From NCBI GenBank assembly GCA_016213845.1, contig JACQZN010000011.1, positions 1-64,000 of the forward strand: 64,000 nt of DNA, in the 5' to 3' direction. This stretch comes from Candidatus Wallbacteria bacterium (lineage in GTDB: Bacteria; Muiribacteriota; UBA6191; JACPRK01). The position numbers and the translations under genes are program-made. Shown here one piece after another: positions 43,801 to 49,516 of the stretch; positions within the stretch are counted from its first letter, which is position 1, and every line of letters begins with the position of its first letter. The notes beneath the pieces are model-generated. The model did not search any database and was not told the origin of the DNA. It saw nothing but the letters and a program-made list of their open reading frames with translations.

Positions 43801-45431
43801 GCGAAAACACCTCCCATCACGAGGGGAAGCAACGGACGACCGCGCCGCCGGGCGCCGGGCGCCTGGGGCAGCGCAGGGTGAATCAACGGCGGCGGCTGGG
43901 CCGGTTCCACGAAGGGAGCGGGTGGCGGCACCGGCACGAATGGTACGGACTGAACGGCCGGCGCAACGGGCGGCGGGGCCACAGGAGCCGGAGGCTCCGG
44001 CGGAGGCTTTGGCTCCGTTTTAGGCACGGTGGGCGGCGCGGACGGGGGAGGAACGGGCTCGGGAGAAGGCGGAGGGCGCACCGGCGGCGGCGGAGCTGGC
44101 TCGGGCGGAGGCAGCGGCAGCGGCTCTCGTTCGGAAGCGCTCGGAGACGGGATCGGCGCGGGTGGCACGACGTCGGAAGTGACGCCGAACCGGAGCTCGA
44201 CTTCGCGAAGCCGCTCCCGAGCTTCTGAGAGAGCTGGGTCGGCGCGCAGCGCCCGGGCGAACGCGTGCGCCGCATCCTCCGGTCGTTCCATCGCCAGGTA
44301 CTGCCGGCCTGCCTCGTAAAAGGCCATGGCCTGGCTCGACGAGCGGGCCACGGGCGCCTCGGGAGCGGGTGGCGTCGCATCCGGGGCGGCAGCACCGGAG
44401 GAGCCGCCCTGGAGCGGCGGATCCGGAGCGCGCTCGGCCACACGCGGTGGCGCAGGCGGCAAGGTTGGCGGCGGGGGCTCATGGGCGCGGTCGGGGGTGG
44501 CCGGCGCCACGGGCGGCAGGGCCGGCACTCCAGCCGCCGCCGGCCTTCGAGAACGCCGCGGCGGCCGCTGGGGAACGGGAGCTGCAGCCGCCCCGGGCTC
44601 GCTCGGCGCTGTTTCGGGGGCTGAGCTTGCGGCCGTTCGTAGCGGCCGCCGTCCTGTTCGCTGCGAGCGGCGCCTTGGCGCGGAGGGCGTGTCGGTCGCC
44701 CCTGCCCGCGGGCCCAGCGACTGCGCCAGACTCTCGAGGAGACGCGTCATGGGCTCCGCGGCCCGTCCATCCCCGGAAGCGCGCGCGACCCAGCTGCCGA
44801 CCTGCGCCTCGAACCAGACCCGGCCGGTTCCGCTGTCCGTGCCTGAGAAGACACACGTGCCGATCCGCCAGCGTAGCGGTTTCTCCCTGCGGTGCCGAGC
44901 CTCGAGAGCGAAGCGGGCTCGCCGAGGTGACGCGAAGTAGGCGAGCTCGAGCTCGAGCTCGGGACGATCGCGGGGAGCGGCTGGCTCGGCGGCAGGCTCG
45001 GCGGCCGGTGGGCGGCCGGAGCGCCGGGCCCTGTATCTCTCCAGCAGAGCCTCGATCTTTCCCATTTTTCTCGGCGGCTCCACCGGGTCGTTCGAGTCGG
45101 TTTTCCCCGAGGGCGCCAACTTCAGCGTGAGCCACCGGCGTCCGCTGTCACGCAGGACCGAGACCAGCTCGAACCCCTCGAGGGAGAGCTCGAAGCCGCG
45201 CGCCATGCGGCGCGCCCACGAGTGACTCGAGAGACCCTCCACAGGCAAGGGAGCATCGGGAAAGTCCAGCGGGAAGCGCGACGGGCCGACCGCCGCCAGG
45301 GCTACCGCGGCCAGGGCGGGCAGAAGCGGGAACAGGATTGGCCAGGTGCGTCTCCTGCGGGAAGCCGCAGGCGTCGGGCGAGGGCGCATGAACGGTCCCG
45401 CTCCGACCGCGTAGCGCCTGGGAGCGTTCAC
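43758..45431 (-). CDS. Proline-rich membrane protein with TPR-like segment
   Basis: The 557-aa protein has one membrane helix at about residues 29-49, an Ala/Pro/Arg-rich spacer, a TPR-like pair of helices near residues 362-412 (AFYEAGRQYLAMERPEDAAHAF), a long Pro-rich linker and a second hydrophobic segment near 533-552 followed by RKRLRP. It should span the envelope or expose a long flexible region. The start is a GTG at 45431 that overlaps the upstream stop (GTGA); an ATG 14 codons later is possible. It lies between a cyclic-nucleotide-binding membrane protein and the uracil-DNA glycosylase. The function is unknown. Confidence 0.68.
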   Translation of the reverse strand: MNAPRRYAVGAGPFMRPRPTPAASRRRRTWPILFPLLPALAAVALAAVGPSRFPLDFPDAPLPVEGLSSHSWARRMARGFELSLEGFELVSVLRDSGRRWLTLKLAPSGKTDSNDPVEPPRKMGKIEALLERYRARRSGRPPAAEPAAEPAAPRDRPELELELAYFASPRRARFALEARHRREKPLRWRIGTCVFSGTDSGTGRVWFEAQVGSWVARASGDGRAAEPMTRLLESLAQSLGPRAGATDTPSAPRRRSQRTGRRPLRTAASSAPETAPSEPGAAAAPVPQRPPRRSRRPAAAGVPALPPVAPATPDRAHEPPPPTLPPAPPRVAERAPDPPLQGGSSGAAAPDATPPAPEAPVARSSSQAMAFYEAGRQYLAMERPEDAAHAFARALRADPALSEARERLREVELRFGVTSDVVPPAPIPSPSASEREPLPLPPPEPAPPPPVRPPPSPEPVPPPSAPPTVPKTEPKPPPEPPAPVAPPPVAPAVQSVPFVPVPPPAPFVEPAQPPPLIHPALPQAPGARRRGRPLLPLVMGGVFACLMFALLRKRLRP

Positions 45432-48400
45432 CTCAGCTCCGCCCTGGGGGTGGCCAGGTCCTCGAGCGTCTCGTAGCTGGCGAGATACTCGCGCATGACG
45501 CGCCGGAACTCCTCCCGAGCTAGCGTCAGGACCCGGCTGCGGGCCTCGGCAACGAGCGAAGGGCCCGACTTCACATCCTCCAGCAGCGCCCGCTCGCCGA
45601 AACACTGGCCCGTCGTGAGCGTGTCGAGCCGCTTTCGAGCGCCTTTGTCGGGAGCGTCGAGCACGGCCACGCGCCCGTCCTGAACCAGGTAGAGGCGATC
45701 GATTGGATCGTCGGACTTTAGGAGGACCTTGTTGGCCGGGTGTTGCTCGGCCTCGAGCCGGGCGGCCAGCTTGCCGATCTCGGCGGCAGGCAGGACGCTC
45801 AGCGCCGGGATGGTCCGCAGGAAGCCGCCGTAACGCACCAGCATCTCCAGCAAGCCTGCGATCGATTCGCCCCCCCCCATCAGCCGCTCCAGATCGCCGC
45901 GTCCCAGCGTGTAGAGCTCCACGTCCTCGCAGGCCACAACCGATGCGGCACGCCGCCCGCTGGAGACAAACGCCGATTCGCCGAAGCAATCGCCGGTCAC
46001 CAGATGGCCCAGCGGCTCGGCGTGACCCGACGGGTCCTCTCGCAGCACGGTCAGCTCGCCGCGCGCCACGACGTAGAATCGATCGGCCGGGTCGCCCTGG
46101 CGCACCACACGATCCCCGGCGTGGTAGCGCTCCAGCCTGACGACACGCATCAGCGCGCTGAACTCGGACTCCGCCAGGCGCGAGAAGAACGGCACGCGTG
46201 CGATCTCGTCGAGCCGGTCCGCGGCTGCGACGTCGGAGACGCCGGCCGGAAAGCTCTCGGGCATGTAGTGGCGCAACAGCTCCTGCTCGAACCAGTAGAG
46301 ATCGCCCATGGCCGTGCTGCGCGCCCAGGACGCGAATCGCCGGCCGGCCCGTTCGACGATGGACTCCTCCAGGAGGTCGAGCGTGCGCTTGAGGACGCCG
46401 ATCAGCCAGGCGGCGTCGCGCTCCTCCCATCCAGCGACGTCGAGCTCGCGATTGACGAGCAGGGCCTCGCCCTTGAACTCGCGCTCGGCGAGCCGGTTGA
46501 AAGCGCGCACCATGGCCTCGGCCTTGCGCTCGCCCAGGCCCATGGCATAGAGGGCGACGATGTTGTTGACGAGGACCTGGGCCGCCAGGAGCAGCATCTC
46601 GCGCTGCCCGCTGCCGGCGTTGGCGACCCGCGGAAAGCCGACCGGGCGGCGCCACTGGTGATCTACCCAGAGTCGCGTGGCCACGGCCGCAGCGATGGCC
46701 AGCGGCCATGCGGCAACCTCCCATCGGATGCTGCCGGTCTCGGGCCAGGTCCCGGGCTCGATGGTGAAACCGAACGCGCCTGCTGCGGCAAGCGCCAGCA
46801 GCGAGAGACCCAGGGGGCGCCAGAAGTGGCACGCGGGCGAAGCGGCGTGGATGCAGATGGGCCCGACTGCCGCCAGGGCGACCCCGACTCCCGCGACGAG
46901 ATCGAGGGCATCGAGCAGGCCGAAGACCGAGGGGTTGCGCCAGAGGCCGAAACCCGCGACGGCTAGCAGCACAGGCACGATGCACGTCAGCAGCGCGCTC
47001 TCGAAGCGGGTGGCCGGCACCAGGTTCGCCTCGCGCCGCAGGTGCCAGGCCGCCAAGAGCAAGAGCAGCGAGGAGAGACGCGTGGCGACCCCGATGGCCG
47101 AGGACGACGGCATCCAGGCGGCGAGGAGCCCGGCGTGCGCGGCCGCGCCGGCCGCCCACGTGAGGGAGCGCACGCCGGCGAAGAGCCCCAGCGCGAACAC
47201 GGCGGCGCCGACGGGCGAGCCCTGAAACGTCTTGCGCGCACGCATCAGGGGGAACATGGCGATGAAGCCGGCGATGCCGCAAACCATCCTCGCCATCGCG
47301 GCGTCGCAGAACATCACCAGCCCGAGCGAGAGCATCGCCGCCAGTGGCGTGACCAGCGTGGCCAGGACGCGGCGTCCCAGCGGCCGCACGAAGCAGGAGA
47401 TCGGAATCCAGACGACCAGCGCGAGCGCGTAGAAGAAGGCACCCAGGATGCCGGCGAGCACGCCGGCCAGCGCGACCCGCGAAAGAGCGGGCCCCTCGGC
47501 GAAGAGCTGCCGGGCGGGGCCGGACGAGAGGTCGCCATAGAGGTGGACGCCCAGCTTCAGCGCTAGCAGCGCCCAGACCATGCCGGCGGCTGCATAGAGG
47601 AACAGGGCGCGTTCCTCCTCGGAGAGCTTCTCGCCTCGGAGCTTTCCGGTCCATTTGCGGCTGAAGAGCGCGAACGCCTTGTCGCGAAGGCTTTCGCGAC
47701 CCAAGAGCATCTGGTAGAGCCGGCAGCCATCTGTGTCGTAGATGGGGCTGACGTCCAGGAACAGCATGAGGAGCCCCACGGTGACGAGCTGCGCCAGCAA
47801 CGGCTCCGGCAGCGGGGGCGGGTGCAGCTGCAGCGCCAGCGCCGCGACGCCTGCCATCGAGAGCGGGGCCCAGAGTCCCGCCAGCAGCGCGCCGGCCTGC
47901 GCCGCCCGGCCGGCCAGCAGCATCCCGCTGCGATCGACGAAGAGCGACGGTACGCCGCTCGAGAAGCCCAGGCCCCAGCACGGGATGTCTCGACCGGACA
48001 CCAGGATGGCGCAGCCGACGACCACCTGCCGCCAGGAGACCGCGAACCAGGCGGCCAGCAGGAGCCCCCAGACCGATCCCCCTTTGGGAATCAGGTGAAG
48101 GCCGGGCTCGGCCAGCAGACCCCTGAGGAAAATCAGCCCGCAAAATGGAAGGAAGATCAGAAAGAACCCGACGAAAACCCGGAAGGCTTTGTCGAGCCTC
48201 TCGTGAGCGTCGATGCGGCCGCAGACCAGCCCGCGCCTGCCGGGAACGCCGGGTCCCCAGGCCGCGCCGGTCAGCAGACCCTCGCGGACGAACCTGAGCA
48301 ACGCCTGGCCCACGCGGTCCGGCCCCAGCGGCGGTGAAGCGCGGAGCATCTCGCCGATCAGGTCTTCAACCGTGCGAGTCCCGTCCAGCAGCCTCCAGAT

Positions 48401-48607
48401 GGCAGCCTCGGAGGCCGACAGCTCCAGGTAGCGCCCCTCGTCGGGATGCAGGAGCACGGCGCGACCGTCTCCCGGCGCCGCCAGCTCCTCGACGTCGTCC
48501 CGCCGGCGTGGCCGCCGTTCCAGCAGCGGCTGCGAACCCACCGTGTGCGGACGCCGAACCGCGGCTTCCGCCGGCTCGGCTGCGACCTGTTCCGCTTCGT
48601 CTTCCAT
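45428..48607 (-). CDS. PqqD + inactive M50-like membrane protein with two cyclic-nucleotide-binding domains
   Basis: The 1059-aa protein (counted from the ATG at 48607; another in-frame ATG at 48664 adds 19 residues; neither has a clear ribosome binding site) begins with a PqqD/RRE-like domain at about 45-115 (VLLHPDEGRYLELSASEAAIW, then LLDGTRTVEDLI). About 12 membrane helices follow. The first ones match YydH-type M50 proteins (SGRDIPCWGLGF, and DTDGCRLYQMLLG as in the NPxxxxDG segment), but the HELGH position reads RQVVV at 193-197, so no zinc site can form. Two CNB domains lie at about 800-911 and 926-1046. The first has a full phosphate-binding cassette (CFGESAFVSSGRRAAS); the second lacks its Arg. 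The upstream boundary is a 27-bp perfect palindrome. Confidence 0.8.
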   Translation of the reverse strand: MEDEAEQVAAEPAEAAVRRPHTVGSQPLLERRPRRRDDVEELAAPGDGRAVLLHPDEGRYLELSASEAAIWRLLDGTRTVEDLIGEMLRASPPLGPDRVGQALLRFVREGLLTGAAWGPGVPGRRGLVCGRIDAHERLDKAFRVFVGFFLIFLPFCGLIFLRGLLAEPGLHLIPKGGSVWGLLLAAWFAVSWRQVVVGCAILVSGRDIPCWGLGFSSGVPSLFVDRSGMLLAGRAAQAGALLAGLWAPLSMAGVAALALQLHPPPLPEPLLAQLVTVGLLMLFLDVSPIYDTDGCRLYQMLLGRESLRDKAFALFSRKWTGKLRGEKLSEEERALFLYAAAGMVWALLALKLGVHLYGDLSSGPARQLFAEGPALSRVALAGVLAGILGAFFYALALVVWIPISCFVRPLGRRVLATLVTPLAAMLSLGLVMFCDAAMARMVCGIAGFIAMFPLMRARKTFQGSPVGAAVFALGLFAGVRSLTWAAGAAAHAGLLAAWMPSSSAIGVATRLSSLLLLLAAWHLRREANLVPATRFESALLTCIVPVLLAVAGFGLWRNPSVFGLLDALDLVAGVGVALAAVGPICIHAASPACHFWRPLGLSLLALAAAGAFGFTIEPGTWPETGSIRWEVAAWPLAIAAAVATRLWVDHQWRRPVGFPRVANAGSGQREMLLLAAQVLVNNIVALYAMGLGERKAEAMVRAFNRLAEREFKGEALLVNRELDVAGWEERDAAWLIGVLKRTLDLLEESIVERAGRRFASWARSTAMGDLYWFEQELLRHYMPESFPAGVSDVAAADRLDEIARVPFFSRLAESEFSALMRVVRLERYHAGDRVVRQGDPADRFYVVARGELTVLREDPSGHAEPLGHLVTGDCFGESAFVSSGRRAASVVACEDVELYTLGRGDLERLMGGGESIAGLLEMLVRYGGFLRTIPALSVLPAAEIGKLAARLEAEQHPANKVLLKSDDPIDRLYLVQDGRVAVLDAPDKGARKRLDTLTTGQCFGERALLEDVKSGPSLVAEARSRVLTLAREEFRRVMREYLASYETLEDLATPRAELR

Positions 48608-48675
48608 GGGTTGCCCCGGCACCGTCCGGAGAAGCTCCGAGTATACGCCAGCCCCCCAGCCCATTCAATGTAAGG

Positions 48676-48732
48676 AAAAACTGGGGACACACGACCTATT
48701 TCTGCGAAATAGGTCGTGTGTCCCCAGTTTTT
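48676..48732. repeat. Perfect palindromic repeat with GGGGACACACGAC arms, copy 2
   Basis: Two perfect 27-base inverted arms (48676-48702 and 48706-48732) surround a TGC loop. The right arm ends in a run of T, so the element could also terminate transcription on both strands. The core is the same as in the element at 37341-37430. It sits between two divergent genes. Confidence 0.85.
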
Positions 48733-48751: not shown

Positions 48752-49516
48752 ATGCCGCCCCTCGTGCTGGCTGCGGGAGTCTTCGCGACGGCGTATGCTG
48801 CCGCGGCGGCGACGCGATGGCTGCCGGCGGACGTGAGCGTTTCCTGGTGCCGCCTGGTGAGCGGGTGGCTCTGCATCGGGGCGGGAGTCACGTTTGTCGG
48901 CATCGGGCGGCGGCAGCGGGTCGAGCCTGCGACGATCCCGATGGCCGTATTGGCCGCGGCAGCGCTTCTCTGGGGGATGGGCCGGCTGGGGCTGGACTCG
49001 ACGCCTGCGCTGCTGCTCAGGGACCTGGCCCAGCTTTCGGCGGCAACCCTGCTTGGCGCGTTTCTCGCCGGCCACATTTCCAGCGGCGAAATCCTCCTGG
49101 CCCTCGGGATCGTCGTGACGGTGACCGACCTCTGGAGCGTTCACGGCGGCGTGACGCGGACGCTGATCGAGGCGAAGGTCGTCGACCACTTCCTGGTCAA
49201 CTTCCCGGTCTTGCTGCAGCCCGAGGTCGGCTTCTTCATCGGCACGTCCGATTTCGTGATGGCCTCGCTCTACATCACGTGCTCCGAGCGGCTCGAGCGG
49301 GCCTGGTGGCGTGCCCCGGCCGCCATCGCCGCCGGGATGATCGCCGCCGGGACGCTCGCGATCACGCTCCGGATTCCGCTGCCGGTGCTTCCCTTCATGG
49401 TGGTCACCTACCACCTGGCCTTCCCGCGCGACTACACCCTGGGCCGGGAGGGGCTCAAGCTGCTGGCGGCGGGACTGGGGCTCGTGGGCGCGCTCGCCCT
49501 GCTCTATCGCCCCTGA
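48752..49516 (+). CDS. Presenilin-like (A22-type) nine-helix membrane protein
   Basis: The 254-aa protein is almost entirely hydrophobic, with eight to nine helices. Three marks of presenilin/signal-peptide-peptidase-type proteases are seen in order: Asp126 in TVTDLWSVHGG, Asp167 in FFIGTSDFVMASLY (the position of the GxGD motif, here GTSD), and LPVLPF at 210-215 (where archaeal homologues have the PAL-type LPALPF). Spacing between the two Asp (41 residues) is short but possible. I infer an intramembrane aspartyl protease homologue; whether it is active is open because the GxGD glycine is Ser. It has no close partner: the genes on both sides are divergent or convergent. The ATG at 48752 has only a weak site. 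A generic integral membrane protein is the alternative. Confidence 0.55.
   Translation: MPPLVLAAGVFATAYAAAAATRWLPADVSVSWCRLVSGWLCIGAGVTFVGIGRRQRVEPATIPMAVLAAAALLWGMGRLGLDSTPALLLRDLAQLSAATLLGAFLAGHISSGEILLALGIVVTVTDLWSVHGGVTRTLIEAKVVDHFLVNFPVLLQPEVGFFIGTSDFVMASLYITCSERLERAWWRAPAAIAAGMIAAGTLAITLRIPLPVLPFMVVTYHLAFPRDYTLGREGLKLLAAGLGLVGALALLYRP

What the first reader, a model, noticed from the sequence alone, without database searches (positions are those of the whole stretch)
48752..49516. Presenilin-like membrane protein with a variant catalytic motif
Seen: a 254-aa, eight-to-nine-helix protein with Asp126 (TVTDLWSVHGG), Asp167 (IGTSDFVMASLY) and LPVLPF at 210-215, in the order and type of the two Asp and the PAL motif of A22 intramembrane proteases. 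Known: archaeal presenilin homologues carry LPALPF and GxGD. Inference: this is a divergent bacterial member in which GxGD became GTSD. Bacterial members of this fold are rarely described, so it may be a new subfamily or an inactive relative.
Basis: partly seen in the sequence, partly recalled or inferred. Interest (0 to 1): 0.7.

Follow-up and report, generated by a model that had tools for sequence, protein, structure and literature searches.

The report
Bacterial presenilin-like membrane protease family
The gene belongs to a family of bacterial membrane proteins, scattered over several phyla and absent from the Pfam and NCBIfam libraries, that keeps the two catalytic aspartates and the proline motif of presenilin, the Alzheimer's-disease protease, so it is probably a bacterial protease that cuts other proteins inside the membrane.

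Summary
Window 48752-49516 (+) is a real, purifying-selected gene (dN/dS 0.2-0.3) for a 254-aa protein with about nine hydrophobic segments, Asp126, GTSD167 and LPVLPF. Alone it matches nothing in Pfam, NCBIfam or PDB. Genome searches found relatives in 25 genomes of its phylum and in several other bacterial lineages. In the broadest alignment (17 rows) only four columns are invariant: Asp126, Gly164, Asp167 and Pro211, the GxGD/PAL catalytic set. Family profiles hit presenilin-1/2 first among 177,635 PDB sequences (E 4e-5 to 7e-4; 0.0018 from own-phylum members alone). GxGD is canonical in several other lineages; the second Gly is Ser, Thr or Ala in this phylum and elsewhere, a change whose Ala version slows but does not abolish known enzymes. 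I read it as a diaspartyl intramembrane protease of a bacterial branch related to family A22, with the Asp-Asp loop predicted outside (SPP-like orientation). By their cut-offs it is not a member of PF01080 or PF06550. The structure model failed (pLDDT 36), so active-site geometry and activity are unproven. No paper on bacterial presenilins was found in the held literature.

The parts
48752..49516 (+). Gene for the 254-aa presenilin-like (A22/GxGD-related) polytopic membrane protein
   Evidence: Open frame with same-genus homologues at 96% and 65% identity, dN/dS 0.21 and 0.29
49127..49141 (+). Codons of D126-L-W-S-V130: first predicted catalytic Asp, in hydrophobic segment 5
   Evidence: Asp invariant in all family members aligned; aligns in register with D257 of presenilin-1 in a sub-threshold stretch
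49241..49252 (+). Codons of G164-T-S-D167: GxGD-equivalent motif with the second predicted catalytic Asp
   Evidence: G164 and D167 invariant; aligned with GLGD385 of presenilin-1
49382..49393 (+). Codons of P211-V-L-P214: PAL-motif equivalent at the start of hydrophobic segment 8
   Evidence: P211 invariant; 44 residues after the second Asp in 21 of 23 sequences; aligned with PALP of presenilin-1

Best explanation
The gene encodes a diaspartyl intramembrane protease of a bacterial branch related to family A22 (presenilin/signal peptide peptidase) that Pfam and NCBIfam do not recognise. Asp126 and Asp167 on neighbouring helices would activate a water molecule in the membrane, with the PVLP loop shaping the substrate site next to them. 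The positive-inside rule places the Asp-Asp loop outside the cytoplasm, as in SPP and opposite to presenilin. That suggests substrates with type II orientation, such as leftover signal peptides or single-span membrane regulators. Ser166 in place of the second Gly of GxGD is a tolerated small-residue change that may tune rate or specificity. Shown: gene, conservation, motif order and spacing, and profile similarity to presenilin. Inferred: fold, catalysis, orientation and substrate.
For: Family profiles against 177,635 distinct PDB sequences: own-phylum-only profile (no GxGD member) has a single hit, presenilin-1, E=0.0018; 17-member profile, single hit presenilin-1, E=0.0036; diverse profiles hit presenilin-1/2 at E=4.3e-5 to 7.3e-4, with the next unrelated hits at E>=0.02. 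The aligned stretch puts G-x-x-D and PVLP onto GLGD385 and PALP, and TM6 aligns D126 to D257 collinearly below threshold. None of 2000 shuffles of the presenilin stretch comes near the real score (20.2 bits against at most 8.5 for the own-phylum profile). As a yardstick, an SPP fragment finds presenilin only at E=0.076. In the broadest alignment only D126, G164, D167 and P211 are invariant. Several relatives in other lineages carry canonical GLGD, GVGD, GMGD or GIGD with PALP or a close variant. dN/dS 0.21-0.29. Ala at the second Gly lowers but does not abolish MCMJR1 and presenilin activity (PMC2947513). Positive loops follow the Asp2 and PAL helices.
Against: P0001 alone has no Pfam, NCBIfam or PDB match. 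No genome match reaches the PF01080 or PF06550 cut-off. Similarity in the first-Asp region is weak: 27 of 2000 shuffles reach the real score with the best profile, and the own-phylum profile shows no signal there. The Tyr before Asp1 (YD motif) is absent and the second Gly is Ser. There is an extra hydrophobic segment after the PAL helix and one fewer before Asp1 than in presenilin. The structure model is unusable. No substrate or activity is known.
Confidence: 0.72

Rival explanations
1. Pseudoprotease or sensor: the presenilin-like fold is kept but used for binding or sensing membrane peptides, not cutting; the GxGD change reflects loss of catalysis.
For: Second Gly replaced by Ser, Thr or Ala in the whole phylum; fusions of the domain to a HisKA_7TM-like region in four genomes and to HAMP plus a nucleotide cyclase in another suggest signalling roles.
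Against: Both Asp and the first Pro are invariant in every member aligned, including those with SD, TD or AD; pseudoproteases usually lose catalytic residues. The Ala variant at this Gly keeps reduced activity in MCMJR1 and presenilin (PMC2947513).
Confidence: 0.15
2. Type IV prepilin peptidase (A24) relative: also GxGD-type diaspartyl, but cutting outside the membrane core.
For: A24 enzymes are bacterial and share the GxGD signature; a gene with a prepilin methylation motif lies about 4 kb from one relative.
Against: No A24 family among the Pfam matches of P0001 or any relative; A24 has no PAL motif (own knowledge), while this family has a fixed Asp2-to-Pro spacing of 44; PDB profile hits are presenilins.
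Confidence: 0.03
3. Unrelated polytopic membrane protein (for example a transporter or scaffold) with a chance resemblance of motifs.
For: Single-sequence searches find nothing; membrane helices give weak spurious matches (GABA-A receptor at E 0.02-0.05); no reliable model.
Against: Four family profiles (overlapping membership) all rank presenilin first in the PDB with the motifs in register, and the only invariant columns are the catalytic ones.
Confidence: 0.1

Closest known systems
Presenilin (MEROPS A22A, Pfam PF01080)
   Same: Asp1 ... GxxD ... P-[AVG]-[LIM]-P in the same order; best PDB match of every family profile except the three-row A3; Asp2-to-PAL distance 44 residues against 48 in PS1
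   Different: No YD, second Gly S/T/A in this phylum, short Asp-Asp loop without the presenilin cleavage-site loop, predicted inverted orientation, extra C-terminal helix, below the PF01080 cut-off
Signal peptide peptidase and SPP-like (A22B, PF04258)
   Same: Predicted orientation (Asp-Asp loop outside); no large insert between the Asp; RF after the GxGD helix resembles the RFD of SPPL2A shown
   Different: Not matched by Pfam; SPPL2A (PDB 9k92) not hit at E<=10 by the family profiles; no YD
Archaeal presenilin homologue PSH/MCMJR1 (PF06550, PDB 4hyc)
   Same: Prokaryotic multi-pass membrane protein with two Asp and GxGD; similar D-x-x-S-V run after Asp1
   Different: PF06550 finds none of 382 bacterial genomes; family profiles do not hit 4hyc at E<=10; PSH has no clear PAL motif (PMC2947513)
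Type IV prepilin peptidase (A24, PF01478)
   Same: Bacterial, multi-pass, GxGD-type diaspartyl
   Different: No profile match; no PAL motif (own knowledge); catalytic Asp lie in soluble regions in A24 (PMC2947513)

Membership tests
GxGD/A22 superfamily (presenilin-SPP, broad sense) | Two membrane-helix Asp in order, invariant across the family | tested here: met
   D126 and D167 invariant in 23 cross-phylum sequences and in the 17-row broad alignment
GxGD/A22 superfamily (presenilin-SPP, broad sense) | GxGD at the second Asp | tested here: not met
   Window has GTSD; the first Gly is invariant, the second is G, S, T or A across the family; canonical GxGD in several other lineages
GxGD/A22 superfamily (presenilin-SPP, broad sense) | PAL motif near the C-terminus | tested here: met
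   PVLP in the window, PALP/PAIP/PALV in relatives; first Pro invariant; fixed spacing in 21 of 23
GxGD/A22 superfamily (presenilin-SPP, broad sense) | Tyr before the first Asp (YD) | tested here: not met
   T, A, V, M or L in nearly all members; Y only in L070
GxGD/A22 superfamily (presenilin-SPP, broad sense) | Sequence-profile similarity to a known member | tested here: met
   Presenilin-1/2 are the only PDB hits with E<0.01 in four profile searches
GxGD/A22 superfamily (presenilin-SPP, broad sense) | Fold with the two Asp and PAL in one site | tested here: inconclusive
   AlphaFold2 with two near-identical sequences gave pLDDT 36.5, pTM 0.27
GxGD/A22 superfamily (presenilin-SPP, broad sense) | Asp-dependent intramembrane cleavage | not testable with these tools
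   Needs an enzyme assay
Pfam PF01080 Presenilin | Score over the curated cut-off (34.3 bits) | tested here: not met
   No hit for P0001; best relative L069 16.7 bits, E 0.0033, over the GxGD-PAL stretch; genome search none over cut-off
Pfam PF06550 SPP (archaeal) | Score over the curated cut-off (23.9 bits) | tested here: not met
   0 of 382 bacterial genomes, while H. volcanii and M. acetivorans controls ring
A24 prepilin peptidase (PF01478) | Pfam match | tested here: not met
   Not among matches up to E 10 for P0001 or the relatives scanned

The most novel reading that the evidence does not exclude
Bacteria of several phyla carry their own branch of presenilin/SPP-type intramembrane aspartyl proteases, which by profile search resembles eukaryotic presenilin more than it resembles the known archaeal PSH. 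In one phylum it tolerates Ser, Thr or Ala at the catalytic GxGD glycine, and in some lineages it is fused to signalling domains (7TM histidine-kinase input region, nucleotide cyclase). It would be an aspartyl arm of bacterial regulated intramembrane proteolysis beside rhomboid and site-2 proteases.
Probability: 0.5. Interest if true: 0.8.

Novelty: new variant of a known kind. Interest (0 to 1): 0.62.

Why it matters
Presenilin/SPP proteases are treated as eukaryotic and archaeal. PMC2947513 says the lack of simple prokaryotic examples held the field back. A bacterial family with the same catalytic set offers small enzymes for structure and mechanism. It would also give a natural experiment on the GxGD glycine, whose mutation changes amyloid production, and reopen the question of where presenilin came from. 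It would add an aspartyl class to bacterial intramembrane proteolysis.

Tried and rejected
Single-sequence Pfam, NCBIfam and PDB searches of P0001: nothing. Related loci in genome contigs: only the 96% copy, Ca. Wallbacteria; viral contigs: none. AlphaFold2: only window and the search for related loci sequences are permitted, so the alignment had two near-identical rows and the model is unusable; no fold search was run on it. The reciprocal PF01080 search re-finds one A22-like locus at E 0.156 only, while controls also ring below cut-off. Gene neighbourhood: conserved in one family (TPR protein, A22-like, DapF, AMMECR1) but different elsewhere, so no substrate could be named. Two ORFs upstream in G002 look like antisense, Arg-rich frames. 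The tree was not used to place presenilin: no full eukaryotic or archaeal sequences were at hand, and its long branches are unsafe. A plasmid search failed on coordinates and was not repeated.

Full report
OBSERVATION. The window frame 48752-49516 (+) translates to the 254-aa protein described. Hydropathy gives nine hydrophobic segments, about 3-21, 33-51, 59-77, 87-105, 104-122 running on to D126, 159-177, 188-206, 206-224 and 234-252. The gene is real: two same-genus genomes hold homologues at 96% and 65% identity, with dN/dS 0.21 and 0.29 and changes most frequent in third codon positions. The 96% copy lies in a metagenome-assembled genome titled Candidatus Wallbacteria.

FAMILY. P0001 alone matches no Pfam or NCBIfam model and no PDB chain (the PDB search gives only chance hits at E 0.4 or worse). 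A search of related genomes found homologues in 25 of 57. A profile survey of 382 bacterial genomes found 38 with a match, 25 in the window's phylum and 13 outside it, one of these (G248) a marginal fragment. Further surveys added more lineages: 8 of 116 around G055, 2 of 2 in the phylum of G305, and 13 of 289 around G151, overlapping sets. Pfam's archaeal SPP model found none of the 382.

ACTIVE-SITE CONSERVATION. Within 17 sequences, 16 from the phylum and one from outside, the invariant columns include Asp126, WSV, G-x-T, a Pro, Gly164, Asp167, Pro211 and Pro214. In the 17-row alignment spanning the widest range the only invariant columns are Asp126, Gly164, Asp167 and Pro211. The Asp2-to-Pro distance is 44 in 21 of 23 sequences. 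Relatives in other lineages have GLGD, GVGD, GMGD or GIGD with PALP, PAIP, PVIP, PGIP or PALV; the window's genus has GTSD, others of its phylum GLTD, GMAD, GISD, GLSD or GSTD, and further lineages GVSD, GVAD, GFAD or GPAD. So the first Gly never changes and the second is always small.

LINK TO PRESENILIN. Four family profiles, with overlapping membership, were run against 177,635 distinct PDB sequences. The own-phylum profile, with no GxGD member in it, has one hit up to E=10: presenilin-1, E=0.0018. The first profile has one hit, presenilin-1, E=0.0036. The two diverse profiles hit presenilin-1/2 at 4.3e-5 to 7.3e-4, with GABA-A receptor chains next at 0.02-0.05. A fifth profile, of only three divergent members, finds nothing. 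The alignment sets GxxD on GLGD385 and PVLP on PALP; a sub-threshold stretch sets D126 on D257, collinear. None of 2000 shuffles of the presenilin GxGD-PAL stretch approaches the real score. The first-Asp stretch alone is weak (27 of 2000 with the best profile). PSH (4hyc) and SPPL2A (9k92) are in the PDB set but are not hit. Pfam Presenilin touches one relative, L069, at E=0.0033, below its cut-off, over the GxGD-PAL stretch.

WHAT THE SER MEANS. PMC2947513 reports that G219A in the archaeal enzyme lowers its rate of proteolysis, and that G384A in presenilin decreases Abeta40 production. [quoted passage not shown] A small residue here therefore tunes rather than kills. With Asp, Asp and Pro never lost, I judge activity more likely than not.

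ORIENTATION. Lys and Arg gather in the loop after the Asp2 helix and after the PAL helix in most members, and the Asp-Asp loop is near neutral. By the positive-inside rule the former two are cytoplasmic and the Asp-Asp loop is outside: the SPP orientation, opposite to presenilin (orientation of the known enzymes is my own knowledge). There is one hydrophobic segment fewer before Asp1 and one more after PAL than in presenilin.

CONTEXT. In the window the gene stands alone, facing a Ser/Thr kinase gene on the other strand (kinase named by eye from the translation). In one family of the phylum it sits between a TPR gene and diaminopimelate epimerase and AMMECR1 genes. A TPR gene also lies two genes away in G286, another lineage. 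In G010, G014 and G018 it is fused to a HisKA_7TM-like region (weak Pfam match, shown for G018) beside an M16 peptidase. In G169 it is fused to HAMP and a nucleotide cyclase domain. These hint at signalling or peptide turnover but name no substrate.

LIMITS. The PMC open library shows no paper on bacterial presenilins in the searches made, but subscription papers, including Raut et al. 2021 on archaeal roots of these proteases, are not held.

VERDICT. A real, conserved bacterial family, unlabelled in Pfam and NCBIfam, related to presenilin/SPP proteases. The window protein is a member of that family with a variant GxGD. It is not a member of PF01080 or PF06550 by their own cut-offs.

Noticed in passing
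window 48676-48732: Perfect 27-bp inverted repeat (3-nt loop) 19 nt upstream of the ATG; four copies of the CTGGGGACACACGACC palindrome in the 6.2-Mb genome, apparently a dispersed palindromic repeat.
   Followed up: partly
L064 6306-9707 (-), genome G169: 1134-aa protein with an A22-like N-terminal domain (Asp, Asp and Pro kept) fused to a HAMP and a nucleotide cyclase domain.
   Followed up: partly
L087 8721-10532 (-), L088, L090, L025: About 600-aa proteins with a HisKA_7TM-like N-terminal region fused to the A22-like domain; in L087, L088 and L090 an M16 peptidase gene is adjacent.
   Followed up: partly
L068, L070, L072 (G331, G043, G193): More divergent branch with GFAD/GPAD and PALVP; L070 has YDAFLVLTPLGFTQKLM, which by eye resembles presenilin TM6 more than other members, but its profile finds nothing in the PDB.
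   Followed up: partly
window 45428-48664 (-): 1078-aa multi-pass protein; by eye an N-terminal PqqD-like part, a degenerate site-2-protease-like core and cyclic-nucleotide-binding-like C-terminal repeats; not searched.
   Followed up: no
genomes G026, G031, G033, G035 (same family as many carriers): One genus (g16) of the carrier family lacks the gene in all four genomes searched, while most sister genera keep it.
   Followed up: no
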